Positions 2,520 to 15,938 of a stretch of DNA of 35,411 bases are shown one piece after another. Within the stretch, counting starts at the first letter, position 1, and every line of letters begins with the position of its first letter. The notes beneath the pieces are model-generated. The model was not told the DNA's origin, ran no database searches, and was given only the letters and a program-made list of their open reading frames with translations. Source of the stretch: Methylocystaceae bacterium (lineage in GTDB: Bacteria; Pseudomonadota; Alphaproteobacteria; Rhizobiales; Beijerinckiaceae); NCBI GenBank assembly GCA_003152255.1, contig PLZT01000203.1, forward strand, positions 1 to 35,411. Reading direction: 5' to 3'. The position numbers and the translations under genes were made by a program.

Positions 2520-2527
2520 CTATCGTT

Positions 2528-2611: not shown

Positions 2612-2851
2612 AAAAACCAAACGGTTTTGCTGACGCCGAAGGAAGCGGCGGCGCGGCTTCGCGTTTCGGAATCGACGCTGGCGAAGTGGCGAATGACGGC
2701 GTTGCGCGCGCTAGCCTTCGTCAAGGTCGGCCACAAGGTGCTTTACGATGAGCGCGAGGTGGAGAGGTTCATCGCGGCGCAGATGCGCCATTCGACGAGC
2801 GATGCCGGCGCGGAGGCCGCCAGGGCGAAAAGCTCAGCGAGGCGCAAGTAA
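2597..2851 (+). CDS. Excisionase/AlpA-like helix-turn-helix DNA-binding protein
   Basis: The chosen ATG at 2597 lies 6 bp after GGAGAGAGG, the best Shine-Dalgarno sequence in the region, giving 84 residues. The core LLTPKEAAARLRVSESTLAKWRM followed by FVKVGHKVLYDEREVERFI is the winged-HTH layout of the MerR-like excisionase/AlpA group: turn, recognition helix, wing, then a helix ending in an acidic-basic stretch. Such proteins in P4-like elements direct excision or activate the integrase or replication promoters. Alternative in-frame starts exist at ATG 2549 and at GTG 2516, which overlaps the stop of the preceding gene; the latter would add the two duplicated 14-residue units. The gene lies in the early rightward operon. 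DNA-binding family is clear; exact role (excisionase or activator) is inferred. Confidence 0.8.
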   Translation: MQLTTKNQTVLLTPKEAAARLRVSESTLAKWRMTALRALAFVKVGHKVLYDEREVERFIAAQMRHSTSDAGAEAARAKSSARRK

Positions 2852-3012
2852 ACTTCAAGTTCTGGTGCGTCCGGCATGGCCAGCCCTACGTCGTGGCGCA
2901 GTCGATCGAAGACGTGCGCGCCGCTTTCGACGTTTGGCGCGTCGTCGACTGCACCCTCACGAACAAAACCATCCCCAACATGCCGCGTCGCGATGACGCC
3001 GCGTCCCTTTAG
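2821..3012 (+). CDS. Small coding-like frame without a canonical start
   Basis: A frame shifted by -1 relative to the HTH gene reads QGEKLSEAQVNFKFWCVRHG and then PYVVAQSIEDVRAAFDVWRV and on to TAG at 3010-3012. Third codon positions are overwhelmingly G or C and the sequence has a balanced composition with aromatic residues, unlike the Arg-rich competing frames, so it looks translated. The frame is open from 2752 but has no ATG, GTG or TTG until GTG 2893, which would yield only 39 residues and would cut into the coding-like part. Options are a non-standard start, a -1 frameshift from the HTH gene, or a gene that has lost its 5' end. No homologous family is recognised. It sits between the HTH gene and the SpoVG-like gene, consistent with an operon member. 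Confidence 0.5.
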   Translation, partial: QGEKLSEAQVNFKFWCVRHGQPYVVAQSIEDVRAAFDVWRVVDCTLTNKTIPNMPRRDDAASL

Positions 3013-3025
3013 ACGGAGCCTTATC

Positions 3026-3310
3026 ATGCAATTCGAGGCGCGCAATTTTCGCATCATGAAAAAGAACACGCTGCTTGGATTCGTGGAGATCGAAACGCCT
3101 TCCGGACTGGTAATTAACGACGTCGCCTTGCACGAGAAGAATGGCAAGCATTGGCTGTCAATGCCAGCCCGCGCCTATGAGAAGAACGGCGAAAAAAGTT
3201 GGATTCCCTACGTCAAATTTAAAAATCGCGAGACGACCGATAAATTTCAGGCCGCCGCGCTGCCCGCCGTTGTCTCCGCCCTCAAGGAAGCGGAGGGCGG
3301 CCATGATTGA
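3026..3310 (+). CDS. SpoVG-like small phage protein
   Basis: The ATG at 3026 follows ACGGAGCC and gives 94 residues. The sequence MQFEARNFRIMKKNTLLGFV, then ETPSGLVINDVALHEKNGKH and WLSMPARAYEKNGEKSWIPYV, follows the layout of small phage and element proteins related to the SpoVG fold: a strand-rich core, a central NDVALHEKNGK turn and a PARAYEKNG motif, then a helix. SpoVG relatives bind nucleic acid; in phage elements they usually sit next to replication genes, as here directly before the primase-helicase, which it overlaps by 8 bp. That coupling suggests a role in replication or its regulation. Assignment to the SpoVG group is from pattern only. Confidence 0.65.
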   Translation: MQFEARNFRIMKKNTLLGFVEIETPSGLVINDVALHEKNGKHWLSMPARAYEKNGEKSWIPYVKFKNRETTDKFQAAALPAVVSALKEAEGGHD

Positions 3311-5576: not shown

Positions 5577-5995
5577 CCTCCGCCCGCGCCCTGCTCGCCG
5601 AAGCAGCCGCCCGAGGCGTCCGTGTCCATCTGCGGCACGGCGAGCTTAAGGCCGCTTATCGCGGAGCCCCGCCACGCGACTTGCTGGACAAGCTGCGGGC
5701 CGCCAAGCCGGAGATTATCGCGGAGATCGCGGCCGAAAGCGCACCCCCGCCGACGCAACCCGCGTCCGTTGTCGCAATGCCGCCACCGCCGGCATTGACG
5801 CCAGAGCACCTCGCAGACGCCCGCGCCGCCGTCGATCGTCTTCTCGACCAGATGGCGCACGAGACCGCTCGCCGCCGGGAATGGTGGCGCGAGCCTCCCG
5901 AGGGCTGGGCCAAGAGCCGGCATTGGCGGGACGCCGTGCGAAGGGACAAGGGAATGTCGGCGAACTGCCAGAATCAGAAAAGGAAAGCGCAATGA
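5573..5995 (+). CDS. TubC docking-domain-like small protein
   Basis: The start is TTG at 5573, overlapping the primase stop codon, with a strong GGAGGAGG Shine-Dalgarno sequence at 5560-5568. The 140-residue product begins ARALLAEAAARGVRVHLRHG and continues with LRAAKPEIIAEIAA, the two-helix plus hairpin pattern of the TubC N-terminal docking domain, a small fold often found after primase-type genes in integrative elements. A Pro/Ala-rich linker (about 57-75) leads to an acidic-basic helical region and a Trp-rich segment (REWWREPPEGWAKSRHW). It probably binds a partner protein, perhaps the primase-helicase, since the two genes are translationally coupled. No enzymatic motif is visible. Confidence 0.7.
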   Translation: MTSARALLAEAAARGVRVHLRHGELKAAYRGAPPRDLLDKLRAAKPEIIAEIAAESAPPPTQPASVVAMPPPPALTPEHLADARAAVDRLLDQMAHETARRREWWREPPEGWAKSRHWRDAVRRDKGMSANCQNQKRKAQ

Positions 5996-6063
5996 AAGCA
6001 AATACGTCCGTCTCCGGTCCCCTCTTAATTAAGGCCGCGATTTTTGCCTGCGGCTGGCGCTGA
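5992..6063 (+). CDS. Possible 23-residue peptide
   Basis: ATG at 5992 overlaps the preceding stop codon (ATGA) and has AGGA at 5981-5984, 7 bp upstream, a good ribosome-binding site. The product MKANTSVSGPLLIKAAIFACGWR has a short hydrophobic stretch and no known family. The overlap and ribosome-binding site are the only support; it could equally be a non-functional readthrough end of the operon. Confidence 0.35.
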   Translation: MKANTSVSGPLLIKAAIFACGWR

Positions 6064-6100
6064 CATGCGCTCGCGCGCTACTCGTGCATCGACTACCTTC

Positions 6101-6163
6101 GGGGAAGGACCCAATGAAATCAAAGACTTACGTTGCTTATGGTTAAGCTCTGGGTCCTTCCCC
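6101..6163 (+). promoter_or_regulatory. Large stem-loop upstream of the terminase gene
   Basis: GGGGAAGGACCCA (6101-6113) and TGGGTCCTTCCCC (6151-6163) are a perfect 13-bp inverted repeat enclosing 37 bp. In RNA it would form a very stable hairpin. The 5' arm contains AAGGA, a Shine-Dalgarno sequence, placed correctly for a ten-codon ORF that fills the loop (6114-6146). No T run follows the 3' arm, so it is not a simple terminator. In DNA it could be a protein-binding or packaging site, since it precedes the small terminase gene. Function is not known. Confidence 0.65.
6114..6146 (+). CDS. Ten-codon leader-type ORF inside the stem-loop
   Basis: ATG at 6114 and TAA at 6144-6146 encode MKSKTYVAYG. 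AAGGA in the 5' stem arm (6105-6109) lies 4 bp before the ATG, so folding would hide its ribosome-binding site. The ORF lies entirely in the hairpin loop. This geometry suggests a leader peptide whose translation opens or is blocked by the hairpin; it may also be chance or the relic start of a lost gene. Confidence 0.3.
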   Translation: MKSKTYVAYG

Positions 6164-6169
6164 TATAGT

Positions 6170-6185
6170 GACCCTCTCGCGGGTC
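6170..6185. promoter_or_regulatory. GACCC-N6-GGGTC dyad, candidate operator of the late genes
   Basis: A 5-bp dyad GACCC/GGGTC with a 6-bp spacer lies 52 bp before the terminase GTG and 17 bp before a TATAAC (6202-6207) that could be a -10 element. The same half-sites recur in the arms of the upstream large inverted repeat (GACCC 6108-6112, GGGTC 6152-6156), giving four alternating half-sites in 78 bp. A repressor or activator site controlling the late operon is a reasonable inference; no recognisable -35 element is present. Confidence 0.35.
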
Positions 6186-6236
6186 AAGCCCGAGCGCTTG
6201 GTATAACTCTAGGCAGAATTTCCTAAGGTGTGAACA

Positions 6237-6785
6237 GTGAACAAAACCGAAGCCGACACAGTTTCCAAGAGTGGATTTGCGCGTCGCTTAGGCGTCACAC
6301 GGAGCCGCATTACAGCATTGATAAAGCGGGGGCTTCCGGTTCGCCGCGACGGAAAAATTGTTGTTACCGATGCTCTGCAATGGGTGAAGAACAACTGTAA
6401 ACAAGGAAACACATATCTTGATCGCGGCGTTAACAGGCTGATCGCCGCCGACGCCGCTGCGGAGCCCACGGTCGCTATTGTCGGGCCGGCGGACGCGGCT
6501 GGTGACTTTCCTGAATTTTGGAGCACGAGCGAGGCAATCCGACGCAAGGAAAGCGCGGTCGCTCGATTGAAGGAACTGGAGCTTGCGGAGCGCAGCGGCC
6601 GGCTACTGGACGCGGCCGAGGTGCTTTCGGACTGGACTACGCAACTGACCGACCTCCGCAAACGGATGCTCTGCGTCGCGTCGCGCGTCGGCACCAGATT
6701 ATCGCATTTGTCGCGGTCCGAGGTATCCGAGATTGATGCCGAAATTCGCGCCGCGCTTTTTGAATTATCGGGAGCAGAGCCATGA
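6237..6785 (+). CDS. Terminase small subunit, Nu1-like
   Basis: The protein should recognise the DNA packaging site and partner a terminase large subunit. The GTG at 6237 follows AAGG at 6225-6228 and gives 182 residues. Residues 12-50 (FARRLGVTRSRITALIKRGL, then PVRRDGKIVVTDALQWV) match the winged HTH of lambda Nu1-type small terminases; the C-terminal half is helical with the DWTTQLTDLRKRMLCVASRV region common in this family. No large subunit gene follows: the next genes are small and unrelated. In satellites such as PICIs, a stand-alone TerS redirects a helper phage's large subunit to satellite DNA, which is the favoured inference here. It starts a new transcription block after a 170-bp regulatory gap. 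Confidence 0.78.
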   Translation: MNKTEADTVSKSGFARRLGVTRSRITALIKRGLPVRRDGKIVVTDALQWVKNNCKQGNTYLDRGVNRLIAADAAAEPTVAIVGPADAAGDFPEFWSTSEAIRRKESAVARLKELELAERSGRLLDAAEVLSDWTTQLTDLRKRMLCVASRVGTRLSHLSRSEVSEIDAEIRAALFELSGAEP

Positions 6786-7228
6786 TCGCGAGATTGACCG
6801 CGCCGCCGCCGCCAAACGTGGACAGTGTGAATGAACGGCTGATCGAGCTAACCCGCCAAGTCGAGCGCGCGTTTGCAATGCTTTGTGCTTTAACCGAGCG
6901 CGTTGCTGCAATCGCGGCCGAACCAAATACGAGGCGTCGAGAGGATGACGAAGCCCTGCCAGCGCGGCCGCCGGGAACGTGGGTATCGTTCAAGGAAGCG
7001 TCCTATCTAACCGGCCGTTCATTGCCTTGGCTTCGAAAATGGCGAGGGCGCGGCGAGATCGCGCAGCATATCGAGGGCGGTTGCATCCTGCTCAATCTGG
7101 AAGACGCGCAGCGTGCGCTCGTGCGCCATTCGCGCACATTAAAAACAGTGCGATTGTCGAATCATGACGAAGAAACTCCTCGATCCGCTCGCCCTATCTC
7201 GCGCTCGCCTCATCGCCGCCGAAACTGA
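6782..7228 (+). CDS. Small protein with HTH-like C-terminal region
   Basis: ATG overlaps the terminase stop by 4 bp (ATGA), so the two are coupled. Of 148 residues, about 10-60 form a helical, coiled-coil-like part (NERLIELTRQVERAFAMLCA). Residues 70-120 (WVSFKEASYLTGRSLPWLRK, then GEIAQHIEGGCILLNLEDAQ) read like a HTH_17/excisionase-type winged helix with a helix, a tryptophan-containing recognition helix and a wing. The last 30 residues are Arg/Ser/Pro-rich and overlap the next gene. It may assist DNA recognition in packaging or late regulation; a precise role cannot be given. Confidence 0.65.
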   Translation: MIARLTAPPPPNVDSVNERLIELTRQVERAFAMLCALTERVAAIAAEPNTRRREDDEALPARPPGTWVSFKEASYLTGRSLPWLRKWRGRGEIAQHIEGGCILLNLEDAQRALVRHSRTLKTVRLSNHDEETPRSARPISRSPHRRRN

Positions 7229-7760
7229 ATTGCTCGCCGCCCGCGAGGCGATGCGCGCGCAAGCAAAAATCGCGGGTGTTACGCACGCTAGTTTGTTTGG
7301 GGAAAGCGCGCTCGTTTTGCGCTCAAGTGCTGAGCGATGGGTTAAGGAAGCGCATTCCGAGGGCTGGGACGATGCGCGCGCGGTGGACAAAGAAAACACC
7401 CGCGCGCTCGAACGCATCGCGAAGGAAGCGGCCGACGACAGAGCCGCCGGAAGACCGAGCAAGTTCGCGCATCTTGCCGGTTGCGGCGAGGCGCTGGCGA
7501 GGAACGTGCGCAACGAGAAACAGTTCGAAATCGATCCGAAGGGATGCGACGCCGATTTTCTGGAAGAGCGTCGCCGCATGGAAACTATCAGCGGTCTCTA
7601 CAAACTTTGCGAAGCGTCCGGCGTGGATTTTGAGACAGCGTTTCCACCCGGTTCGCTCGCGACGCCGGCGAAGATGGCGATGGCCGAAACGATCGTCGCT
7701 GGCGCGAGCCGCCGTGAAAGCGTTGTCGATTTAGCAGCGCGGAGAGGATCAAAAAAATGA
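7164..7760 (+). CDS. Hypothetical late-region protein, mostly helical
   Basis: The ATG at 7164 lies 65 bp inside the preceding gene, an unusually long overlap; no later start has a better ribosome-binding site and the N-terminus (MTKKLLDPLALSRARLIAAE) looks genuine. The 198-residue product is mainly charged amphipathic helices, with a central RNEKQFEIDPKGCDADFLEE segment. No conserved motif is recognised. It is in the tightly packed cassette following TerS, so a packaging, scaffolding or capsid-modifying role is possible but unproven. Confidence 0.7.
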   Translation: MTKKLLDPLALSRARLIAAETELLAAREAMRAQAKIAGVTHASLFGESALVLRSSAERWVKEAHSEGWDDARAVDKENTRALERIAKEAADDRAAGRPSKFAHLAGCGEALARNVRNEKQFEIDPKGCDADFLEERRRMETISGLYKLCEASGVDFETAFPPGSLATPAKMAMAETIVAGASRRESVVDLAARRGSKK

Positions 7761-8134
7761 GTTTCGTTTCCCGATTCCAACAAGTCGCCGATGCTTTCGA
7801 ACGCGAGAAAAGGCGCCTCTCATTTTACAAGCCGACCAAGCCCGCGAAGCCCGCGCCCGCGCCAGCAAAGCCTGCTGGTAAGCGAAAGGCCGGCGAAGGA
7901 CCGGATGCGGCCGAATGGTCCGACACCGTGTCAGACCCCGTAGCGCTGGCGGCCAGTATCTGCCGTGCGGCGGCCAAAGCTCGCGGCGAGATCACGGATG
8001 ATGACGACGCCGACGACGACCAGGACGACCAGGAAATTGTTGACGCCGACGAGGAAGACGACAACGCCAAGAAGGCGAAAGACTTGGCGAAAAAAATAAT
8101 AGAGGCGGGCAAGCGCCGGAGAAACGAGCAATGA
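7757..8134 (+). CDS. Hypothetical protein with a strongly acidic run
   Basis: ATG overlaps the previous stop by 4 bp. Of 125 residues, the N-terminal 30 are helical (MSFVSRFQQVADAFEREKRR), then a Lys/Pro/Ala-rich linker (KPTKPAKPAPAPAKPAGKRK), a short helical segment and an Asp/Glu-rich stretch (about 78-103), ending in a basic helix KKIIEAGKRRRN. Alternating acidic and basic tracts suggest an unstructured DNA-mimic or protein-binding tail, as in small phage scaffold or decoration factors. Family unknown. Confidence 0.7.
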   Translation: MSFVSRFQQVADAFEREKRRLSFYKPTKPAKPAPAPAKPAGKRKAGEGPDAAEWSDTVSDPVALAASICRAAAKARGEITDDDDADDDQDDQEIVDADEEDDNAKKAKDLAKKIIEAGKRRRNEQ

Positions 8135-8490
8135 GCGGATCATGGCGTCTCGCGGGCGCGGCGACGGAGGCGCATCAAATCGAGGAGAACGAGGCGCTCG
8201 CTGCGATCGCGAGCGGTTCCCAAAATTGGGCGGTGACGCAAGTTGCGATCGGGAACAGCGCAACGCTGTTGTGTCCCTCGCGCGCCGGCCGGAGAAGTGT
8301 CACGCTGACAAATCGTGGCGTCACAGCGATTTATTTCGGCAGCGACAACAAAGTATCCGTTGCATCCGGCGTCCCTCTTCCCGGCATCGTCGGCGCGTCA
8401 AAAACAATCGGAACAAGCGCTGAGATATGGGGCATCACGGCCGACGCGGCGAACGTGTCCATCGAGGAATTGTTTAACCGGAGCGAATGA
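8131..8490 (+). CDS. Predicted small beta-rich phage structural-type protein
   Basis: ATG overlaps the previous stop (ATGA). The 119-residue product has a central pattern of alternating strands: VTQVAIGNSATLLCPSRAGR, SVTLTNRGVTAIYFGSDNKV and GITADAANVSIEEL. The succession of an AIGNSAT strand, a VTLTN turn, a YFGSDN strand and a terminal VSIEEL strand resembles small beta-sandwich proteins encoded near phage head and tail genes. Homology is a pattern judgement only. In a satellite such a protein could decorate or modify a helper capsid. Confidence 0.62.
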   Translation: MSGSWRLAGAATEAHQIEENEALAAIASGSQNWAVTQVAIGNSATLLCPSRAGRRSVTLTNRGVTAIYFGSDNKVSVASGVPLPGIVGASKTIGTSAEIWGITADAANVSIEELFNRSE

Positions 8491-8491
8491 A

Positions 8492-9040
8492 ATGGTTGTC
8501 CGAATTTTGACCGGCGCGCAAGTTGAGCGAAGCAATTTTGTCATGCCTACTGACGTGGAATTGCGCCAATTGATGCATCTGGTTTTGACGAGGTTTCCTA
8601 TCCTAGACGGCGCGAACGCGCGCGACTGGACCCCGCGCGACGCCCTGGAGCGCGAGCGAAGTTTCAAAAACGCATTTTGGGCATTGGCATTTTTCACGCG
8701 ACTCGAAAACGTGGAACGAAAGCGCGTTCATTCGACGAGTTTTTGGTGCGGTGAAGTTGATGCGTTTTTGAACCAGAGCAATGTTTGGGATTTTGAGTGT
8801 GGCCAGGCCCCGTTCACCATCGCGGTGATCGCGCACAACGATATTCCGTTTGCGCCGCTCGACCGCTGGCCATTGGAAATGTCGTTTGGCTTGCAAGTTG
8901 GCGGCGGCGGAAGGCGCGCGAGCGATGCTTGGAAGCGCGTGCTTAAAGGCGAGTTTCGCGCGCCCGAAGTTGTGCAGCAGACGCGCGAGAGCAACTTTTA
9001 TCCCGTGCCGCAAGTTCGGTTTTACGGCGACGGATATTGA
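8492..9040 (+). CDS. Hypothetical late-region protein
   Basis: The ATG at 8492 is 2 bp after the preceding stop; longer in-frame extension upstream to 8315 would overlap the preceding gene extensively and is rejected. The 182-residue product is a soluble alpha/beta protein with many aromatic residues (NAFWALAFFTRLENV; STSFWCGEVDAFLNQSNVWDFE; RESNFYPVPQVRFYGDGY). No catalytic motif or family is recognised. It is the last gene before two tandem hairpins, so it closes the late transcription unit that starts with the terminase gene. A structural or host-interaction role is possible. Confidence 0.7.
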   Translation: MVVRILTGAQVERSNFVMPTDVELRQLMHLVLTRFPILDGANARDWTPRDALERERSFKNAFWALAFFTRLENVERKRVHSTSFWCGEVDAFLNQSNVWDFECGQAPFTIAVIAHNDIPFAPLDRWPLEMSFGLQVGGGGRRASDAWKRVLKGEFRAPEVVQQTRESNFYPVPQVRFYGDGY

Positions 9041-9045
9041 GGCTT

Positions 9046-9074
9046 CGCGCGGTGTGTTGTTGCTTCACCGCGCG
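9046..9074 (+). terminator. First hairpin after the late operon
   Basis: CGCGCGGTG (9046-9054) and CACCGCGCG (9066-9074) form a perfect 9-bp stem with an 11-nt T-rich loop, starting 5 bp after the stop codon of the preceding gene. No T run follows directly. It is followed by a second, longer hairpin with a T run. Confidence 0.45.
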
Positions 9075-9079
9075 CGAGC

Positions 9080-9127
9080 CGGCGGCGCTCTTTGTTGTGG
9101 AACGGTGGGGAGCGCCGCCGTGTTTTT
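9080..9127 (+). terminator. Intrinsic terminator of the late operon
   Basis: CGGCGGCGCTC (9080-9090) and GAGCGCCGCCG (9110-9120) make a perfect 11-bp GC-rich stem with a 19-nt loop, followed by TGTTTTT (9121-9127). The loop is large, but stem and T tract fit Rho-independent termination of the genes beginning at the terminase. Confidence 0.7.
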
Positions 9128-9237
9128 CGAGACTTCGCGGAGTTGGAGGTAGCTCCCCAAATCCGCGCGAGGCCAGCGCCGCGCCGGGGGCTCCTAGACC
9201 CGTCGCGGCGCGCGGGCCTCACAGATGAGGAAACAAA

Positions 9238-9489
9238 TTGAAGCACGCGGCGGATGAATTTATGCACGAAATAACGATGCGTCGCGGCGCGGACGGGATG
9301 TTCTACATTGCCGATGAATTTCTGCCGGCGCTTTCCGTTCCGGCGCAAGACCTCGCTGATATGCGCCTCAAACTCGCGCCGCTTCTGGCAAGCTGCGCCG
9401 GAATCGAAGATTTCAAAATCAAGCTGAAATCCGCGCCGCTCGTGCATCATCTTGAGCCGAGGCGCCCGAGGCGATCTGACGGAGATTGA
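9238..9489 (+). CDS. Small hypothetical protein
   Basis: The start is TTG at 9238, with GAGGAAAC at 9227-9234 as the ribosome-binding site; the next in-frame ATG (9262) would remove MKHAADEF and has no good site. The 83-residue product contains MHEITMRRGADGMFYIADEF, then a helical DLADMRLKLAPLLASCAG segment, with a basic C-terminus. No family is recognised. It lies alone beyond the late terminator and is followed by a 218-bp inverted-repeat element, so it has its own expression or is a remnant. Confidence 0.55.
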   Translation: MKHAADEFMHEITMRRGADGMFYIADEFLPALSVPAQDLADMRLKLAPLLASCAGIEDFKIKLKSAPLVHHLEPRRPRRSDGD

Positions 9490-9537
9490 ACATAGTCTTC
9501 ATCTGGCGGCGCGTCAGGAAATATGGGAGCGCGTGAA

Positions 9538-9755
9538 GGGGTCTGAGTAGCAGCGGAACAGAAAACCAACATAGGCCCATTTTGGCCAAGGGGTTAGCCG
9601 TTGATAGATTGTTGGACGGGTTTATGTGAGTTTTTCGGAGCGATTTAGGCGGATTTCGAGGAGCGCCGGCATCATCCCATCAAACCCACGTTTGTTGAGA
9701 AATCAAATTGTTAGGCGCTTGTGTAGGTTTTCAGCTCCGCTGCTACTCAGACCCC
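9538..9755. mobile_element. 218-bp non-coding element with 30-bp terminal inverted repeats (MITE-like)
   Basis: The left end 9538-9567 (GGGGTCTGAGTAGCAGCGGA and ten more bases) and the complement of 9726-9755 agree at 28 of 30 positions. The 158-bp interior is AT-richer than its surroundings and has no credible gene; a short minus-strand reading MMPALLEIRLNRSEKLT ends in a stop and could be relic coding sequence. No clear target-site duplication is seen at the edges (GTGAA directly outside on the left recurs only 6 bp beyond the right end). A MITE, a deleted insertion sequence or a cargo boundary are possible. It ends 13 bp from the stop of the J-domain gene. Confidence 0.6.
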
Positions 9756-9768
9756 GGGATGTGAACGG

Positions 9769-10176
9769 TTACAATCTGTATTTCCTATTTACAAATACCG
9801 CACAAGCTACCCATCCAAGCAATACAATATAACCGTTATATGTTTCCTCATTCCCTGTGTCCCCGAGCATGAAACAGTAAACGCCAAATATCGCTAGCAT
9901 TAGACTTACAGCAATATTAAAGATAACTTGATATGCGCTTGCTGTCTCGTGCTTCTGTTGCGCAGCCTCTGCGGCCAAGGACAGCTGAAAGTCATAAGCG
10001 ACTCTTTTGTAATGGTCTTTAAGAACGTGGTATGCTTCGTTTATGTTCTTAAAGCGTTCAGTGTCTCCGGTTGGCGCATCTGGATGGTAGACCTTCGCAA
10101 GACGGCGAAATGCTTCGGCTATCGCTTTGTCGTCTGCATGCTCGTCGACACCGAGCACTTCATAAAAAGTCGCCAT
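9769..10176 (-). CDS. Membrane-anchored J-domain (DnaJ-like) protein
   Basis: A co-chaperone-type protein predicted at the inner membrane with its J domain facing the cytoplasm. The ATG is at 10176, with AGGAG on the minus strand 11 nt upstream; the longer frame upstream is not supported. Residues 1-70 are a J domain: MATFYEVLGVDEHADDKAIA, FRRLAKVYHPDA with the essential HPD triad near 34-36, and INEAYHVLKDHYKRVAYDF. Two transmembrane segments follow (VIFNIAVSLMLAIFGVYCFM and YIVLLGWVACAVFVN), giving a 135-residue protein. J proteins stimulate DnaK ATPase; here no partner chaperone is encoded nearby. The gene is markedly more AT-rich than its neighbours and runs opposite to the replication and late genes, as cargo genes (morons) often do. 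A role in host defence or phage interference is conceivable but not shown. Confidence 0.85.
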   Translation of the reverse strand: MATFYEVLGVDEHADDKAIAEAFRRLAKVYHPDAPTGDTERFKNINEAYHVLKDHYKRVAYDFQLSLAAEAAQQKHETASAYQVIFNIAVSLMLAIFGVYCFMLGDTGNEETYNGYIVLLGWVACAVFVNRKYRL

Positions 10177-10375
10177 AGGTAGGTATTCTCCTAGAATTGG
10201 CCTCGGTTGTTTGGGCAGCCCTGCGGAAATTAAGTGGATTCCTGCCGGGTTGCTGGATGCGGGGCGGTCACGATTTTGTCGCGGCGGCGGGAGGGCGTAG
10301 CCCGACCAGAGCGACAAACTCGTGAGCAATCGTCATGCGGCGACCGCCGTCGCTTTGGCCTTGAAGTAAGCGAGG

Positions 10376-10750
10376 CTAAAAATAGGGCGCTTTTTGGTGC
10401 ATGCGCATGTAGGGCAATAAATGAGCGCCAAACTCGTTGTAAAATCGGCCAATTTCCGCAAAGTGTCTATCACGCGCATCAAGGGAACTGTCATCCTCGC
10501 GCCCATCAAGAGCATGGTGCTTGATCATCGCTTCGCGTAGGCCGTCAAGATACGAATTGACCTCCTTTCCGAACAGGAATGGTACCTCGCCTCTCGCACC
10601 GTCAAACTTTCTAACGTGACCGTTGGTGACATTGCCTCCGCGTATGATTTCATCGACGACATCTCGAAGCGAGTCGTAGACGGCCATCCGCATTTCGAAA
10701 AGGTCGAGCACGGCGCGTTGATGTGCCGTGCGCCATTGAAGGAAGGCGAT
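10376..10750 (-). pseudogene. N-terminally truncated hypothetical protein of a membrane-anchored family
   Basis: The minus-strand frame reads VIAFLQWRTAHQRAVLDLFE, MRMAVYDSLRDVVDEIIRGG and continues to PYMRMHQKAPYF. This matches a widespread proteobacterial family in which an N-terminal membrane helix leads to QWR..HQR..LDLFEKR..VY..LR and ends PYMRMHQ. The expected membrane helix is absent: upstream of VIAFLQ the frame becomes Arg-rich and meets a stop at 10802-10804, while another gene fragment abuts at 10750. A GTG at 10711 could start a 111-residue protein but has no ribosome-binding site. It is therefore read as a gene fused or truncated at 10750. Function of the family is unknown. Confidence 0.6.
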
Positions 10751-10914
10751 TACTTCTTGTCTATCCCGGCGTCGGCGAGGGTGGGTCTCCCAACTTGGTT
10801 CTCATTCGGAACTAAGTCAGTGCGTTTGCCTTGTGCCAGCCCCACGGTCTCTTTCTGCACGCGGATGCACTCGCCGAGGCGGCGCTCTTGCGCCAGGGAA
10901 TCGCCTCGCCTATT
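10750..10914 (-). pseudogene. Fragment of a phage/plasmid DNA-associated protein
   Basis: In the frame ending at 10750 the minus strand reads LAQERRLGECIRVQKETVGL and, shortly after, RPTLADAGIDKK and a stop. Full-length proteins with the pattern RAERRLGELL..QKETVGL, then PTLADAGIDKKLSSRAQKLA, are common in prophages and plasmids; here the sequence stops exactly after GIDKK where LSSRAQ is expected. The N-terminal part before about residue NRRGDS is not recognisable either. It is a remnant broken at the junction with the neighbouring truncated gene. Confidence 0.6.
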
Positions 10915-11241
10915 CTTTGAGCAAGCGAACGGCTGCACAACCAGACGCCACGAAGCGGCCCGACCACGGATGAACTGGCGGGGCGTTTTTGCGTTTGCGG
11001 GAACATCTTGAAATGCGCCGGCGTCGTGACAACATCGAATCATGAGACGGGGCAAGCCTCCCGTTTCTGACTTTGCCCGGCCAGCTGCTCCCCCACGCGC
11101 TGAGCCGGGCCTTTCTTTTGGGGTTATCGCTCCATTCCCGCCACCCTCTGCCCGCGCGCCCGCGACGCCTTGGGATTGCGGGGCGGCGATTTTGGGCACG
11201 GCGGTGGCGTCATGATCTGACTTGGAGCGGCGTTTCGACCC
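10915..11241. other. Non-coding right end of the element
   Basis: No supported gene. Open frames here are Arg/Gly/Pro-rich with no domain. The stretch holds an ACGGG-N8-CCCGT dyad at 11047-11064 and, after it, a plus-strand terminator-like hairpin at 11075-11119. Residual coding from the broken minus-strand gene may extend into it but cannot be recognised. Confidence 0.4.
11075..11119 (+). terminator. Terminator-like hairpin near the right end
   Basis: GCCCGGC (11075-11081) pairs with GCCGGGC (11104-11110); AGC/GCT inside can extend pairing; CTTTCTTTT follows at 11111-11119. Orientation is rightward. No rightward gene lies directly upstream, so it may insulate the tRNA and chromosome from the element, or be left over from a lost gene. 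Confidence 0.55.
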
Positions 11242-11264
11242 GTGCCGACATGGTGCCGATATGA
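11242..11264 (+). promoter_or_regulatory. Probable right arm-type integrase sites
   Basis: GTGCCGACATG followed by GTGCCGATATGA, matching the left copy at 621-643 in 22 of 23 positions and in the same orientation. It lies 55 bp inside attR. See the left site for reasoning. Confidence 0.7.
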
Positions 11265-11319
11265 GCGGACCGCGCAAGCAAAGCACTGGGTCTTTTCGTC
11301 TCTAAGTATCTGATTTTAT

Positions 11320-11395
<76 letters not shown>

Positions 11396-11686
11396 ACATT
11401 ATTCTCGCCAGCTTTTGGGACAAGCGGGAGCTTCGCAGCGGCTCGTGCCGCTGGGATGGGCGCTGTATAATCGACACGCGGCGAGGCCGCAAGGGCGCAA
11501 TGCGAGTTTGTGACGATTTTGGCGCGCATTTTCGCGCATTGCCAGGCTTTTCCCGCGCACTGGCGCGCGGGCGAGGAAAAATGCTAAGGGACCCGATCGT
11601 TCCTCGGGCGGCGCCGGGTGGCCGGCGCCTTTTTCACGGGGCGCGCCGGAGCCTCGAGCGCCGCGACTCTCTGGCGGGATATTTAA
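11396..11686 (+). promoter_or_regulatory. Structured leader and possible promoter of the sphingolipid operon
   Basis: A TATAAT at 11465-11470 could be a -10 element, though no good -35 is seen 17 bp upstream. Between it and the operon start lie CAGCGGC-tcgt-GCCGCTG (11436-11453), CCCGCGC-N6-GCGCGGG (11552-11571) and a strong terminator at 11610-11634. A transcript of about 160 nt from near 11477 to 11634 would be a small RNA or an attenuated leader. The operon's own ribosome-binding site precedes the GTG at 11687. Confidence 0.45.
11610..11634 (+). terminator. Intrinsic terminator 53 bp before the spt-like gene
   Basis: GGCGCCGG (11610-11617), loop GTGG, CCGGCGCC (11622-11629) and TTTTT (11630-11634) form a textbook Rho-independent terminator. 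No rightward gene ends upstream in the present arrangement, so it either ends a small RNA or acts as an attenuator for the downstream operon. Confidence 0.78.
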
Positions 11687-12922
11687 GTGACGAAGCACAG
11701 AAGCCTCTCGGACTATGCGGCGCGGCGGTTCCGTTTCGCCGGCAACGCGCTGCTCGAATTTTCGGACCCGTTCTTCGCGCAGATCGACAAGCTGAAGGCC
11801 GATCTCGAAAAATCCGGCAAGCATTTCGTCAGCTTCGCCAATTACGACTATCTCGGCCTCGCGAATCACCCGCGCATTATCGACGAGGCCAAGCGCGAAC
11901 TCGACAATCTTGGGGTTGGCGCGTTGGCCTCGCGGCTTGTTGGCGGCGAACGCAGCACGCATAAGCCGTTCGAGGCGGAGATCGCCAAATTTCTGGGCTT
12001 CGAGAGCGCGCTGACGCTGGTCTCGGGCTATCTCGCCAATGTCACGACCATCGCCTGGCTGATGGGCAAGCGCGACGCGATTTTCATCGACGAACTCGCG
12101 CATAACAGCATCGTCGCCGGCGCCGACGGCTCGGACGCCGAGGTCATTAAATTCCGCCACAACGACTATGACCACCTCGAACATCTGCTGCACAAGCGGC
12201 GCGAGGAGTTCCGCCATGTGCTGATCGTCGTCGAGGGCATATACAGCATGGACGGCGACACCGCCGACCTGCCGCGATTGCTGGAGATAAAGGACAAGCA
12301 CCAGATCTGGCTGATGCTGGACGAGGCCCATTCGCTCGGCGTTTTGGGCGAGACCGGGCGCGGCCTGCCAGAGTTTCAGGGCGTCGATCCTTCGCGGATC
12401 GATCTCGTCGTCGGCACGATGTCGAAGACGCTGGCGTCTTGCGGCGGCTATGTTTGCGGCAGGAAGCAGGTGATCGACTGGTTTCGCTACACGCTGCCCG
12501 GTTTCGTCTATAGCGTCGGATTGTCGCCGGTGATTCTGGCCGCCGCCCGCACCGCGCTGCGGCTCATGCAAGAAGAGACCTGGCGAATCAGCAAACTCGC
12601 CAAAAACGCCGAGTTTTTCCGCGATTCCGCTCATGCCGCGGGGCTTTCCACCGGTCCGGCGATTGGCCGCGGCGTCGTGCCGATCCTGTTTCAGGACAGC
12701 GTCGAAACCATGTGGGCCTCGCAACATCTGCTGGAGCAGGGTTTTTATGTGCCGCCGATCGTGCAGATCGGCGTGCCGAAGGACCAACCGCGCCTGCGCT
12801 TCTTCATTTCCGCCAATCACACGGAAGCCGAGATTCTCGGTGTGATCGCGGCGTTGCGCGACATGCCGCCGGTTTCCGAGGAAGCGCACCGGATTGTCGC
12901 GGCGGCGATGGCCGGAGCGTGA
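11687..12922 (+). CDS. spt: Alpha-oxoamine synthase, probable serine palmitoyltransferase
   Basis: A PLP-dependent fold-type I enzyme expected to condense an amino acid (serine) with an acyl thioester to a 3-keto long-chain base in the cytoplasm. The GTG start at 11687 gives 411 residues, usual for the family. Motifs: ANYDYLGLANHP near 51-62, His139 (DELAHNS) that stacks on PLP, Asp212 and His215 (LDEAHSLG), and the PLP lysine Lys247 (GTMSKTLASCGG). Spacing of the Asp, His and Lys matches the bacterial serine palmitoyltransferase. Other members of the family (KBL, BioF, ALAS) share these motifs; the downstream ceramide-synthase-like, desaturase and hydroxylase genes favour the sphingolipid assignment. 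It is first in the operon, after a structured leader. A ceramide reductase and a dedicated acyl carrier protein are not present in this window. Confidence 0.75.
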   Translation: MTKHRSLSDYAARRFRFAGNALLEFSDPFFAQIDKLKADLEKSGKHFVSFANYDYLGLANHPRIIDEAKRELDNLGVGALASRLVGGERSTHKPFEAEIAKFLGFESALTLVSGYLANVTTIAWLMGKRDAIFIDELAHNSIVAGADGSDAEVIKFRHNDYDHLEHLLHKRREEFRHVLIVVEGIYSMDGDTADLPRLLEIKDKHQIWLMLDEAHSLGVLGETGRGLPEFQGVDPSRIDLVVGTMSKTLASCGGYVCGRKQVIDWFRYTLPGFVYSVGLSPVILAAARTALRLMQEETWRISKLAKNAEFFRDSAHAAGLSTGPAIGRGVVPILFQDSVETMWASQHLLEQGFYVPPIVQIGVPKDQPRLRFFISANHTEAEILGVIAALRDMPPVSEEAHRIVAAAMAGA

Positions 12923-13104
12923 CGCCTTATTCCAAAGAGTAGCGAGGGGAGGAAGCGCGCCCAAAGGCCCGGCCGGTCCAGCGGTCGAAGTCTCATGTAA
13001 TTGCCCGCCGCCGCTCTCGTTTTTTGAAGCAGTGCAACTATAAAGGACGCTCGCCGCGTCGTTATGACGCTTTTATCGACACTGGAACAGGGTTAGGTTT
13101 CGAC

Positions 13105-14244
13105 ATGGCGCAAATCGACGTGGCCCCGGCCAAAGGCCTGTTTGGGTTTTTGACATATAATAAGCTCCCGCGTTTGCTCTATGCGGGAATGACGGGATTC
13201 GCGCCGCCGCTCGACGTGGAGCGCTGGACCCTGCACGGCCATATGCTCAATCCGCATTTCAAGCTGGTCGAGGCTCAGGAGTTTCTGGCCCGCCGGGATG
13301 GCGAATGGGTTGGGCGCATTATGGCGCAAGTCTATAAACCCGAGTTCACCCCCGTCGGCGCCTCGCGCTTTCAATTCGGCTCGCTCGACGCCGTTGATGA
13401 CATCGAGGTCGTGCGGGCTCTGACCGGCGCGGCGGAAGACTGGCTGAAGGCGCGGGGCGCTGATCGCATCAGCGGTCCGTTCTCGCCGACGATCAACGGC
13501 GAATGCGGCATGCTTGTCGCGGCCTTCGAGTCGACGCCGGTGTTCTTGACGCCCTGGCACCCGCCTTACCTCTCCCGCCATGTCGAGGCGCTCGGCTATG
13601 TGAAGGCGCGCGATCTCGTCTCCTATCGCTTCGATCTGTCGCCGGACGACTTGAACCAACCGGCCCGCGTCTCGAATCGGCGCGAGTGGAAAGACCGGCT
13701 GAAAATCCGCCAGATCGACTATTCCCGCATGAAACAGGGCGAGACGCAGTTGATGTCGGACCTCTTTAACGACGGCTGGCGCGACAATTGGGGGTTCGTG
13801 CCCTTCACCCTCGACGAATTCAATTCCATCGCCGACGCTCTCAGCTTCGCCACGCCGCCGGAATACACGATAGTCGTCGAACTCGACGGCAAGCCGGTGT
13901 CCTTCGCCGTCGCGCTGCCCAATTTGTTCGAGATCATCGACGATCTCGACGGGCGTTTGTTGCCGTTCGGTCTCGCGCGGCTCATTCCGCGCTTTCGCAA
14001 GCACAAATACAAGAGCGGCAAGCTGCTGCTGCTCGGCACGCGCAAGGAGCTGCAAAGCAGCGCCACCGGCGGCGCGATTCTTATGGCGATCATCGAGGAG
14101 CTGCGCCGCCGCGCGCTAGAGACGAATCTCGAACATCTCGAAGCCGGCTGGGTGCTCGAAGACAACATCGCCATGCGCCGGCCGATTGAAATGTTCGGCG
14201 GCAAGCTCGAAAAGATCCACCGCATCTACGACAAGCGCCTATAG
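13105..14244 (+). CDS. bcerS: GNAT-like acyltransferase, probable bacterial ceramide synthase
   Basis: Likely N-acylates the long-chain base formed by the preceding enzyme, giving a (keto)ceramide. The ATG at 13105 (MAQIDVAPAKGLFGFLTYNK) follows a TTAGG Shine-Dalgarno sequence and gives 379 residues; a longer TTG reading from 13024 has an unconvincing N-terminus. The protein has two GNAT-like halves: LARRDGEWVGRIMAQVYKPE and FGSLDAVDDIEVVRALTGAA with GADRISGPFSPTINGECGML, then a second part ending in LEAGWVLEDNIAMRRPIEMF, the usual end of this family. The Caulobacter ceramide synthase belongs to this family, which databases often name dATP pyrophosphohydrolase or GNAT-like. Assignment rests on that family resemblance plus operon context. 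It lies 182 bp after spt and 31 bp before the desaturase. Confidence 0.68.
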   Translation: MAQIDVAPAKGLFGFLTYNKLPRLLYAGMTGFAPPLDVERWTLHGHMLNPHFKLVEAQEFLARRDGEWVGRIMAQVYKPEFTPVGASRFQFGSLDAVDDIEVVRALTGAAEDWLKARGADRISGPFSPTINGECGMLVAAFESTPVFLTPWHPPYLSRHVEALGYVKARDLVSYRFDLSPDDLNQPARVSNRREWKDRLKIRQIDYSRMKQGETQLMSDLFNDGWRDNWGFVPFTLDEFNSIADALSFATPPEYTIVVELDGKPVSFAVALPNLFEIIDDLDGRLLPFGLARLIPRFRKHKYKSGKLLLLGTRKELQSSATGGAILMAIIEELRRRALETNLEHLEAGWVLEDNIAMRRPIEMFGGKLEKIHRIYDKRL

Positions 14245-14275
14245 GCCGGGGCGCGAGACAGAAGGAATGAAATCC

Positions 14276-15268
14276 ATGACCATCTCAGTCACGGCGAATG
14301 GCGCGGATCGCTCGCATATTGAAAGACGCAAGGCGATCCTGGAGAAATATCCACAGGTGCGCGAATTGTTCGGCCGCGACGAGACGACCTTCAAGATCGC
14401 CGCGGCGATTTTTGTCGGACAGATGGTCATCGCGGCTTTTCTTGGCTGGCTCGGCCTCTCGTATTGGCCGCTGACGCTGCTGCTCGCCATCTGCGTCGGC
14501 GCCTTCGCCAATCACGCCAATTTCGTCATCATCCACGACGCCATCCACAATTGCGTGTTCGAGAGCCATCTCCTCAACAAATGGACGGCGATCCTCGCCG
14601 ATCTCTCCAACGGCTTTCCGACGGCGATGGGCTTTCGCTGCTACCACATCAAGCATCATTCGCATCTCTCCGCCTATGACTACGACGCCGACGTGCCGAG
14701 CCATTGGGAAGTGGAGTGGGTCGGCGACAGCGGCTGGCGCAAGGCGCTGTGGCTGTTTTTCTTCCCGGCGATTCAACTGGCGCGTCTGTCGCGGCTGAAG
14801 GGCACGGTGCCGATCATGGGCAGATGGACCTATATCAACATCGCGGTCATCGTCGCCTTCGATATCTTCGTGCTGTGGGCCTTCGGGCCCAACGCCTTGC
14901 TCTATCTCTTCCTGTCGTTCTGGTTTTCGGTGGGAGGGCTGCACCCCTTGAGCGCGCGCTGGCTGCAGGAGCATTTCGCCTTCGGCCCGGACCAGGGAAC
15001 CTTCGACTATTACGGCCCGCTCAACACGCTGGCGCTGAACATCGGCTATCACAACGAGCATCACGACTTCCACGAAATCCCGTGGACGCGGCTGCCGAAG
15101 CTCAAGGCCATGGCGCCGGAGTTTTACGACACGCTCGGCTGTCACCGCTCCTGGGTGGCGCTGCTCGTCACCTTTATTTTCGATCCCCGATATTCCCTGA
15201 ACACGCGTTCGGAGAATGTCGAACATGCGGCGCATGCGGCTGAAGTCGCCGCGCAGCCGGCGGAGTGA
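14276..15268 (+). CDS. DES1-like sphingolipid desaturase
   Basis: A membrane di-iron desaturase, likely introducing a double bond in the long-chain base of ceramide. The ATG at 14276 lies 9 bp after AAGGA and gives 330 residues. Three histidine boxes are present: HDAIH (87-91), HIKHH (124-128) and HNEHH (259-263), with the characteristic GYHNEHHDFHEIPWTRLPKL and APEFYDTL surrounding the third. This is close to the signature of eukaryotic delta-4 dihydroceramide desaturase DES1 (GYHNEHHDFP..PG..L, then APEYYD). Transmembrane segments lie near 42-80 and 185-220. A generic fatty-acid desaturase is the alternative, but the sphingolipid-type third box and the neighbours favour the specific call. 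Next gene starts 5 bp downstream. Confidence 0.82.
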   Translation: MTISVTANGADRSHIERRKAILEKYPQVRELFGRDETTFKIAAAIFVGQMVIAAFLGWLGLSYWPLTLLLAICVGAFANHANFVIIHDAIHNCVFESHLLNKWTAILADLSNGFPTAMGFRCYHIKHHSHLSAYDYDADVPSHWEVEWVGDSGWRKALWLFFFPAIQLARLSRLKGTVPIMGRWTYINIAVIVAFDIFVLWAFGPNALLYLFLSFWFSVGGLHPLSARWLQEHFAFGPDQGTFDYYGPLNTLALNIGYHNEHHDFHEIPWTRLPKLKAMAPEFYDTLGCHRSWVALLVTFIFDPRYSLNTRSENVEHAAHAAEVAAQPAE

Positions 15269-15272
15269 GGTC

Positions 15273-15938
15273 ATGACCTTCGAAACAAAAAACATCGGCG
15301 GCGAGACGCCGGAGCAACTCAGCGCGTCGCCGCGCCTGTTCGAGAGCGACCTGCTCGACAAGCTCTCGCGGGTGCATCATCTGACGCCGGTGATCATCTA
15401 CACGCCGATCATTCTAGGGCTGACAATCTATTCGCTGACGCTGCAAGGCGCCGCCACTGCCGCGCTTGGCCTTTTTGTCGGCTACATCGCCTGGACGCTG
15501 ACCGAATATTTCGGCCATCGCTATCTGTTCCATACGGTGTTCGCGCTGCCGCTCGGACTCGGGCCGCGCTTCCAGTTTCTCATCCACGGCGTGCATCACA
15601 TCTACCCGAGCGATCCGCTGCGCCTAGTGATGCCGCCGCTGCTGTCGGCGCCGATCATGCTGCTGGCGCTCGCCGTCATCCGCTTGCTGTTCGGCGGCGT
15701 GTTCGGCTGGCCGGTGCTGGCGGGATTCATCGGCGGCTATGTGATCTATGATTTCGTGCATTTCTGGACGCATCACGGCCAGCCGAAATCGAAGCTCGGC
15801 CATCTCGTGCGCCGCCTGCACATGCTGCATCACTTCCGCGACGCGACCAAGGGTTTCGGCGTGCACGCGATCTGGTGGGATTATGTGTTCGGCACGGCCT
15901 ATCGCAAGGGCGAGACGCCGGGCACGAAGGCGGTTTGA
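15273..15938 (+). CDS. Fatty acid hydroxylase superfamily protein, FA2H-like
   Basis: A membrane di-iron hydroxylase of 221 residues, probably adding a hydroxyl group (2-hydroxylation by analogy with FA2H/Scs7) to the acyl chain of ceramide. ATG at 15273 is 5 bp after the desaturase stop, with GTGAGG as ribosome-binding site. The histidine clusters of the family are all visible: HRYLFH, HGVHHIYPSDPLRLVMPP, HFWTHHG and HMLHHF. The phrase GVHHIYPSDPLRLVMPP is very close to the HGxHHxxPxDxxRLVxPP motif of fungal and mammalian FA2H. Four membrane segments fit a compact core without the cytochrome b5 domain of the eukaryotic enzyme. It ends the operon; its stop codon is 2 bp from the convergent ligA stop. 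Confidence 0.8.
   Translation: MTFETKNIGGETPEQLSASPRLFESDLLDKLSRVHHLTPVIIYTPIILGLTIYSLTLQGAATAALGLFVGYIAWTLTEYFGHRYLFHTVFALPLGLGPRFQFLIHGVHHIYPSDPLRLVMPPLLSAPIMLLALAVIRLLFGGVFGWPVLAGFIGGYVIYDFVHFWTHHGQPKSKLGHLVRRLHMLHHFRDATKGFGVHAIWWDYVFGTAYRKGETPGTKAV

What the first reader, a model, noticed from the sequence alone, without database searches (positions are those of the whole stretch)
11687..15938. Compact sphingolipid operon with eukaryote-like desaturase and hydroxylase
An spt-like synthase, a bacterial ceramide-synthase-like protein, a DES1-like desaturase (GYHNEHHDF) and an FA2H-like hydroxylase (GVHHIYPSDPLRLVMPP) lie head to tail. Bacterial sphingolipid clusters are known, but linkage to both a DES1-type desaturase and an FA2H-type hydroxylase in one operon suggests a bacterium making desaturated, hydroxylated ceramides similar to those of eukaryotes. 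Ceramide reductase and carrier protein genes are not here, so they must be elsewhere or replaced.
Basis: partly seen in the sequence, partly recalled or inferred. Interest (0 to 1): 0.78.

Follow-up and report, generated by a model that had tools for sequence, protein, structure and literature searches.

The report
Sphingolipid gene cassette in methane-eating bacteria
Four neighbouring genes in a methane-oxidising bacterium look like most of a pathway for making sphingolipids, fats best known from animals, plants and fungi, including two enzymes of the kind those organisms use to desaturate and hydroxylate ceramide; partner genes lie elsewhere in the genomes of its relatives, but no such lipid from these bacteria turned up in the searches made here.

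Summary
The window is from a Methylocystaceae-type methanotroph; ORF1-4 (Spt-like synthase, tandem-GNAT bCerS-like acyltransferase, DES1-type desaturase, FA2H/Scs7-type hydroxylase) run head to tail. The same order on one strand occurs in 28 of 30 such loci found with ORF2; the others are a contig cut inside the desaturase gene and a lone second ORF2.

The missing steps lie elsewhere, in relatives. Of 32 Beijerinckiaceae genomes, the 15 with cassette-type Spt and acyltransferase all hold the desaturase, the hydroxylase, a dedicated ACP, a ketosynthase and a close GT21 (ceramide-glucosyltransferase family) enzyme; desaturase, hydroxylase and close GT21 are in 0 of the other 17. A short-chain reductase goes with them (13 of 15, 2 doubtful); no CerR orthologue was seen. 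Outside the cassette, the hydroxylase sits by GT21 (7 of 7) and the desaturase with the reductase (2 of 2).

Best reading: a glycosylated, desaturated, hydroxylated ceramide made with a non-canonical Spt and an SDR for CerR. No activity or lipid is shown; a published Methylosinus lipidome reports no sphingolipid.

The parts
11687..12922 (+). ORF1, Spt-like alpha-oxoamine synthase (411 aa, GTG start, conserved in homologues); predicted to condense serine with an acyl thioester
   Evidence: Aminotran_1_2 1.2e-48; solved Spt 3a2b 7.6e-63 and Kbl 1fc4 1.2e-64, lysine K247 in GTMSKTLA aligned with GTFSKSLA (that it is the PLP lysine is recalled); below every NCBIfam cut-off; own clade
13105..14244 (+). 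ORF2, tandem-GNAT acyltransferase, bCerS-like (379 aa)
   Evidence: PF00583 4.4e-4; 35% identity, 4e-53, to the GNAT near a canonical Spt in L039; AlphaFold model pLDDT 87.4 matches tandem GNATs, 7q3a E 4.6e-13
14267..15268 (+). ORF3, DES1-type sphingolipid desaturase (333 aa)
   Evidence: PF00487 5.1e-22 and PF08557 6.6e-9; His boxes H90/H94, H130/H131, H262/H265/H266 in 41 of 41 sequences, H127 in 40 of 41
15273..15938 (+). ORF4, FA2H/Scs7-type hydroxylase (221 aa)
   Evidence: Scs7 4zr1 8e-23; PF04116 2.7e-14; ten histidines in HX4H, HX2HH, HX3H, HX2HH and RLVMP identical in all rows of an alignment of the window with 43 unique homologues (columns filled in at least 95% of rows)
13056..13070 (+). 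terminator-like stem in the gap between ORF1 and ORF2; may separate transcription of ORF1 from ORF2-4
   Evidence: consensus scan only
11610..11629 (+). G+C-rich stem followed by TTTTT upstream of ORF1; terminator or leader element
   Evidence: consensus scan only

Best explanation
The four genes are the backbone part of a bacterial glycosphingolipid pathway. ORF1 condenses serine with an acyl thioester, probably on a dedicated carrier protein, to a 3-keto long-chain base; ORF2 N-acylates it; an SDR encoded elsewhere reduces the ketone in place of CerR; ORF3 desaturates the long-chain base (most likely at carbon 4); ORF4 2-hydroxylates the N-acyl chain; a GT21 enzyme, perhaps followed by a GT2, adds sugar. 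Shown by computation: gene identity by family, the catalytic motifs named in the parts, conserved order, and co-occurrence with the other genes in related genomes. Inferred: every substrate, the reaction order, the position of double bond and hydroxyl, the sugar, and that the window's own genome (not held) carries the second module.
For: Order spt-gnat-des-fah on one strand in 28 of 30 Methylocystaceae-type loci. Profile over 32 Beijerinckiaceae genomes, 15 with the cassette-type Spt and acyltransferase and 17 without: des 15/15 and 0/17 (E <= 1e-20); fah 15/15 and 0/17 (E <= 1e-20); close GT21 (41% identity or more, E <= 1e-87; best other genome 1.6e-54) 15/15 and 0/17; KAS 15/15 and 4/17 (G309, G297, G319, and G322 at 40%); ACP at E <= 1e-15 15/15 and 3/17 (G309, G297, G319), at the search's own 1e-4 15/15 and 8/17; SDR at E <= 1e-75 13/15, only 45-46% in the other 2, and 1/17 at 43% (G284). 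Rearrangements keep partners together: fah 60-1330 bases from GT21 in 7 of 7 genomes where it is outside the cassette; MaoC-SDR-GT2-des on one strand in 2 of 2 genomes where des is outside. ORF2 is 35% identical to the GNAT near a canonical Spt. An SDR with 3-ketosphinganine reductase activity exists in Bacteroides (PMC9278070, passages).
Against: No lipid or activity is known. A lipidome of Methylosinus trichosporium OB3b reports only PG, PE and methylated PE at 4 mM phosphate, with MGDG, GADG and ornithine lipid at 10 uM (PMC9239053 sections 5 and 16 read); 'sphingo' occurs once in its main text, for the added standard. OB3b itself is not among my loci. That paper leaves its MGDG glycosyltransferase unidentified, and GT21 could be it. 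ORF1 scores higher against the BioF model than any Spt model and passes no cut-off; the row next outside its wider clade is a BioF-like protein, L155 (86/86, long branch). G310 has a Spt of this clade (55%) and a GNAT (35%) but neither des, fah, close GT21 nor KAS. The SDR matches of G296 and G336 (46%, 45%) stand alone and may be paralogues, for G295 and G334 have second copies at 43-44%. The profile is not corrected for kinship: the 15 are 9 genera of one family. KAS, ACP, MaoC and SDR could equally be a fatty-acyl elongation set.
Confidence: 0.6

Rival explanations
1. The ceramide core is right, but ORF3 acts as a hydroxylase or bifunctional enzyme (as animal DES2 does at C4), giving phytoceramide or another hydroxylated form rather than a double bond.
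For: One public source names some relatives 'sphingolipid 4-desaturase/C4-monooxygenase'; DEGS2 is bifunctional (PMC10140171, abstract in listing); in Caulobacter a DesA-family desaturase/hydroxylase is suggested to hydroxylate the N-acyl chain (PMC11324152, passage). The family signature does not separate the activities.
Against: The same source names other close relatives 'sphingolipid delta-4 desaturase'. Neither name rests on an assay that I saw.
Confidence: 0.2
2. ORF1 uses glycine or alanine and the pathway makes N-acyl aminoketones or 1-deoxyceramides rather than serine-based ceramides.
For: ORF1 is outside the canonical Spt clade and its best PDB match is Kbl.
Against: A close GT21 enzyme occurs in 15 of 15 cassette genomes; a 1-deoxy base has no C1 hydroxyl to glycosylate (stated for 1-deoxy sphingolipids in PMC8311935, passage).
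Confidence: 0.12
3. The oxygenases act on ordinary fatty acids or other lipids and sit beside the ceramide genes without working on ceramide.
For: No substrate has been tested.
Against: Co-occurrence, 15/15 against 0/17, and partner-keeping rearrangements.
Confidence: 0.08
4. The unlinked ACP/KAS/MaoC/SDR module is an acyl-supply line whose trans-2-enoyl thioester is condensed by ORF1, so that the carbon-4 double bond comes from the acyl chain and the SDR is an acyl-thioester ketoreductase, not the ceramide ketoreductase.
For: The module has ketosynthase, SDR and MaoC-dehydratase-like proteins; I saw no enoyl reductase among the seven genes of the module in L116, though none was searched for in the genomes.
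Against: A DES1-type desaturase is present in 15 of 15, and in two genomes SDR and MaoC sit with it, in one of them (G331) shown away from the ACP and KAS.
Confidence: 0.07

Closest known systems
Caulobacter-type bacterial ceramide pathway (Spt, bCerS, CerR, dedicated ACP)
   Same: An oxoamine synthase next to a GNAT acyltransferase related to the one in a canonical Spt neighbourhood; a dedicated ACP exists in relatives.
   Different: ORF1 is in another clade and below Spt cut-offs; no CerR orthologue found, an SDR instead; DES1-type desaturase, FA2H-type hydroxylase and GT21 added. In Caulobacter the acyl hydroxylation is ascribed to a DesA-family enzyme, CC_0202 (PMC11324152, passage).
Eukaryotic de novo pathway (SPT, KDSR, ceramide synthase, DES1, FA2H, glucosylceramide synthase)
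   Same: Same set of reaction types predicted: SDR-type reductase, DES1-signature desaturase, Scs7/FA2H-type hydroxylase, GT21-family glycosyltransferase.
   Different: The N-acyltransferase is a tandem GNAT, not a eukaryotic ceramide synthase; common descent of the desaturase or hydroxylase with the eukaryotic ones was not tested.
BT_0972 3-ketosphinganine reductase of Bacteroides thetaiotaomicron
   Same: An SDR doing the keto reduction in a bacterium (PMC9278070, passages); precedent for the proposed role of the SDR here.
   Different: Sequences not compared; the SDR here has no assay.
PfSgaAB of Pseudomonas fluorescens MYb115
   Same: A non-canonical oxoamine synthase with SPT activity, with a presumed KDS-reductase homologue SgaC (PMC12134224, passages).
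   Different: There an iterative type I PKS supplies the chain; here separate ACP and KAS proteins.
HpnI (hopanoid glycosyltransferase)
   Same: The GT21 enzyme scores 156 bits against HpnI.
   Different: Cut-off is 310; a second, 29-33% identical copy in the 15 cassette genomes, and 29-36% hits in some others, is the likelier HpnI (not itself scanned).

Membership tests
Serine palmitoyltransferase (Spt) | passes a curated Spt model | tested here: not met
   NF047599 294.6 of 500, NF047600 275.2 of 640, NF047603 211 of 670 bits
Serine palmitoyltransferase (Spt) | PLP-lysine motif and oxoamine-synthase family | tested here: met
   K247 aligned with the lysine motif of solved Spt, alignment over residues 35-384
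Serine palmitoyltransferase (Spt) | groups with canonical bacterial Spt in a tree | tested here: not met
   own clade; Spts L039-L041 (over NF047603 cut-off) group with the row L032 (39 rows, several long branches)
Serine palmitoyltransferase (Spt) | uses L-serine | not testable with these tools
   needs an assay
Bacterial ceramide synthase (bCerS) | GNAT-superfamily protein homologous to the acyltransferase in a canonical Spt neighbourhood | tested here: met
   35% identity, 4e-53; tandem GNAT fold; Caulobacter bCerS itself was not compared
Ceramide reductase CerR | orthologue of the epimerase-like protein beside Spt | tested here: not met
   query taken from L039 by position and reading; 49-53% identity in two more sphingomonad-family genomes, but in 15 cassette genomes 27-40% hits, mostly partial, best 2.2e-22, about as in two genomes without the cassette (2.5e-20, 3.5e-19); G001 is 90% complete and the window's genome is not held
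Sphingolipid Delta4-desaturase (DES1) | Lipid_DES N-terminal domain PF08557 over cut-off | tested here: met
   35.5 bits, cut-off 23; rare in Pseudomonadota: 5 of 398 genomes, three of them Beijerinckiaceae and one (G385) probably spurious
Sphingolipid Delta4-desaturase (DES1) | three histidine boxes | tested here: met
   41 of 41 sequences, one box histidine 40 of 41
Sphingolipid Delta4-desaturase (DES1) | regiospecificity and ceramide substrate; common clade with eukaryotic DES1 | not testable with these tools
   no eukaryotic sequence at hand; fold search weak, best viral hits are desaturases at E 0.016-0.058, best PDB hit 8xks_K 0.0075
FA2H/Scs7 ceramide fatty-acyl 2-hydroxylase | metal-binding histidines and RLVMPP as in Scs7 | tested here: met
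   that these histidines bind the metal in Scs7 is recalled
FA2H/Scs7 ceramide fatty-acyl 2-hydroxylase | acts at carbon 2 of the N-acyl chain | not testable with these tools
   needs lipid analysis
GT21 ceramide glucosyltransferase | Glyco_transf_21 domain, distinct from HpnI | tested here: met
   PF13506 3.8e-43; HpnI below cut-off; one source names a number of relatives 'ceramide glucosyltransferase'. Tested on L116 of a relative, not in the window
GT21 ceramide glucosyltransferase | transfers sugar to ceramide rather than to diacylglycerol | not testable with these tools
   needs an assay

The most novel reading that the evidence does not exclude
Type II methanotrophs and other Beijerinckiaceae make a eukaryote-like glycosylceramide with a Delta4-unsaturated base and a 2-hydroxy acyl chain, through a second, independently assembled bacterial ceramide pathway: a non-canonical Spt, an SDR instead of CerR, and DES1-, FA2H- and GCS-type enzymes that kept company through several genome rearrangements.
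Probability: 0.35. Interest if true: 0.85.

Novelty: new variant of a known kind. Interest (0 to 1): 0.64.

Why it matters
Surveys for bacterial sphingolipids look for relatives of known Spt, bCerS and CerR sequences (as in PMC11334938, passages); a pathway with a non-canonical Spt and no CerR could be missed or half seen. If the reading is true, methanotrophs, which matter for the methane budget, carry a membrane lipid class that the one lipidome paper I read does not name; environmental glycosylceramides of unsure source (PMC10667739, passages) could in part be theirs; and the origin of the eukaryotic DES1 and FA2H steps becomes testable with bacterial relatives that work in one pathway.

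Tried and rejected
CerR by similarity: no orthologue, only general hits of this kind. Conserved neighbours of the cassette in Methylocystaceae: downstream genes that read as LigA and GGDEF/EAL proteins are neighbours in 15 of 19 sequences compared (names by reading) but have no visible lipid role. Fold search with the ORF3 model (mean pLDDT 78) was not informative. The public protein search with ORF3 gave 1134 proteins of which 120 were listed; no listed name is eukaryotic (most rows bear no organism), so a tree with eukaryotic DES1 was not built. The sphingomonad-family PF08557 gene (G569, 42% identity over residues 17-314) stands without a cassette partner in the 20 kb read; the G385 hit lies in a proline-rich frame and was taken as spurious. 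Promoter scan gave 2 sites against 1.1 expected. That the GT21 enzyme is HpnI was rejected. Arrival of the cassette with the mobile element upstream was considered: the integrase and Prim-Pol genes lie on the far side of the tRNA, and the LigA-like neighbour is shared with relatives, so the cassette looks resident.

Rows dropped before counts: of 18 genomes with an ORF2 match, G338 (27% identity) was left out; of 42 without a match, 15 were taken, not at random. G309 and G310, with more distant ORF2 relatives (40% and 35%), were counted among the 17 without the cassette.
Full report
What is there. Four genes lie head to tail on the + strand at 11687-15938. ORF1 (11687-12922) is a PLP-dependent oxoamine synthase; ORF2 (13105-14244) a GNAT; ORF3 (14267-15268) a fatty acid desaturase with the sphingolipid Delta4-desaturase N-terminal signature PF08557; ORF4 (15273-15938) a fatty acid hydroxylase. 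ORF4 aligns with solved Scs7. The gaps are 182, 22 and 4 bases. A terminator-like stem in the first gap means that a single transcript is not established.

Where it comes from. ORF2 found 33 loci in named genomes: 30 from Methylocystaceae or from records that match ORF2 at 60% identity or more, one Rhodobacteraceae, one Novosphingobium, one labelled Bacteroidota. The nearest, PLAI01000112.1, is 99% identical in ORF2. The window's own assembly is not held; the nearest genome, G001, matches the cassette region at 97% DNA identity.

Conservation. All four genes at 50% identity or more, in this order on one strand, are in 33 of 53 loci examined: 28 of the 30 Methylocystaceae-type loci and 5 of 20 loci fetched by handle, one of these (L061) from G001's genus. 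Of the two exceptions among the 30, L008 ends inside the desaturase gene and L026 holds a lone second ORF2 in a genome that has the cassette on another contig, L019. In the wider family some genomes have spt-gnat-des without fah in the cassette, some spt-gnat alone.

The genes that seemed missing. In four of the wider-family loci (L042, L044, L045, L047) a ketosynthase and a small ACP sit near the cassette. Searches of 32 genomes (15 with the cassette-type Spt and acyltransferase, 2 with more distant ORF2 relatives, 15 with none) gave: KAS in 15 of 15 and in 4 of the other 17; ACP at E <= 1e-15 in 15 of 15 and 3 of 17, at 1e-4 in 15 and 8; ORF3 in 15 of 15 and 0 of 17; ORF4 in 15 of 15 and 0 of 17; the close GT21 enzyme (E <= 1e-87) in 15 of 15 and 0 of 17; the SDR at E <= 1e-75 in 13 of 15, at only 45-46% identity in 2 (G296, G336), and in 1 of 17 at 43% (G284). 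The two weak SDR matches stand alone and may be paralogues. The 15 genomes are 9 genera of one family, so the plain chance figure of 1.8e-9 for a 15-of-15 against 0-of-17 split overstates the case. Exceptions: G310 has a Spt of this clade (55%) and a GNAT (35%) without the rest; G309 a GNAT (40%), KAS and ACP without the rest; G297 and G319 KAS and ACP alone.

A second module. In Methylocystis G304 (L116) the genes run ACP, KAS, a small protein without a Pfam match, MaoC, SDR, GT21, GT2 on one strand (the genus follows from its kinship to G001). In G001 (L114) the same run can be read, with a stretch of unknown bases. GT21 is PF13506 at 3.8e-43 and falls below the HpnI cut-off; one public source names a number of its relatives ceramide glucosyltransferase.

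Rearrangements. In the seven cassette genomes where ORF4 is not in the cassette it lies 60-1330 bases from GT21. In the two where ORF3 is not in the cassette, it lies in a MaoC-SDR-GT2-des run, while the KAS-ACP locus I fetched for one of them, G331, has no SDR among its conserved genes. These moves tie the hydroxylase to the glycosyltransferase and the desaturase to the reductase, and favour the SDR as the keto reductase of the base or ceramide over an acyl-chain role; MaoC going along with it is a point the other way.

The synthase. ORF1 keeps the lysine motif of solved Spts but fails every NCBIfam Spt cut-off and scores best against BioF, also below cut-off. In a tree of 39 oxoamine synthases it groups with its Beijerinckiaceae orthologues, G310 and the Rhodobacteraceae row L030 (99/97), apart from the canonical Spts, whose membership rests on NF047603 over cut-off. 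Rows outside include 5-aminolevulinate synthase (L156), glycine C-acetyltransferase (L158) and BioF-like proteins below the BioF cut-off (L155, L035); L155 is the row next outside the wider clade (86/86). Several long branches make the deep order unsure. So 'works like Spt' rests on gene company, and 'is a canonical Spt' is rejected.

The reductase. The epimerase-like protein beside ACP and Spt in L039 was taken as CerR by position and reading. It has orthologues at 49-53% in two more sphingomonad-family genomes, but in the 15 cassette genomes only 27-40% hits, mostly partial, about as good as in two genomes without the cassette. In Caulobacter CerR is periplasmic and related to NDUFA9 (PMC11087976, passages). 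A bacterial SDR with the activity is known (PMC9278070, passages).

Catalytic residues. Box histidines of ORF3 are in 41 of 41 aligned sequences, one of them in 40 of 41. In ORF4 the ten histidines are invariant in the 43 unique homologues aligned. The ORF2 model is a tandem GNAT, with N-myristoyltransferases among the lower matches.

Against. A lipidome study of Methylosinus trichosporium OB3b names no sphingolipid of the cells (PMC9239053, sections 5 and 16 read in full, other passages by search), and leaves its MGDG glycosyltransferase unidentified. The strain is not among my loci, and the study followed phospholipid and glycolipid classes, but the finding weighs against sphingolipid as an abundant lipid under those conditions.

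In print. Searches with Methylocystis and sphingolipid (4 papers, all listed), methanotroph or Methylosinus with ceramide or sphingolipid terms (798 papers at two terms, 25 listed, mostly general ceramide papers), Beijerinckiaceae genera with sphingolipid or Spt (12 of 45 listed), family names with desaturase terms (13 listed), and sphingolipid desaturase or bacterial pathway terms (capped) listed no paper whose title or shown abstract reports sphingolipids of these bacteria. The library lacks most subscription papers; the paper on convergent bacterial ceramide synthesis is not held. Automatic annotations already name ORF3 relatives sphingolipid delta-4 desaturase.

Verdict. Real, conserved, and most simply a variant bacterial glycosphingolipid pathway; product and enzyme activities unproven.

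Noticed in passing
window 653-11395: A phage-type integrase with Arm-DNA-binding domain (653-1951), a Prim-Pol/AAA protein (3141-5573) and ORFs without a Pfam match (7164-9037) precede tRNA-Ala (11320-11395, minus strand): perhaps an element integrated at the tRNA, next to but outside the cassette.
   Followed up: partly
L030 7059-18019 and L031 9851-12635: A Rhodobacteraceae MAG and Novosphingobium album carry GNAT-ACP-KAS runs near genes that read as sugar-export or glycan genes; in L030 an ORF1-like synthase (51%) and what reads as an inositol-phosphate synthase lie nearby (names of the neighbours by reading).
   Followed up: partly
L057 (G295) and L059 (G326): Second synthase-GNAT pairs (44-45% and 29-31% to ORF1 and ORF2) in genomes that also have the cassette, near a protein that reads as a CDP-alcohol phosphotransferase.
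   Followed up: no
L049 (G331) and L053 (G291): Lone ORF2 relatives (54% and 53%) among genes that read as hydrogenase genes.
   Followed up: no
L026 10001-11138 (Methylosinus sp. Sm6): A lone second ORF2 copy that aligns in two overlapping pieces, suggesting a broken gene; the cassette is on another contig, L019.
   Followed up: no
L135 9182-10231 (G569): A DES1-type desaturase in a sphingomonad-family genome, 42% identical to ORF3, without cassette partners in the 20 kb read.
   Followed up: partly
G297 and G319: These genomes have the KAS and ACP pair (KAS 50% and 59%, ACP 44% and 65%) but no ORF2, ORF3, ORF4 or close GT21 match: a relic or another use of the module.
   Followed up: no
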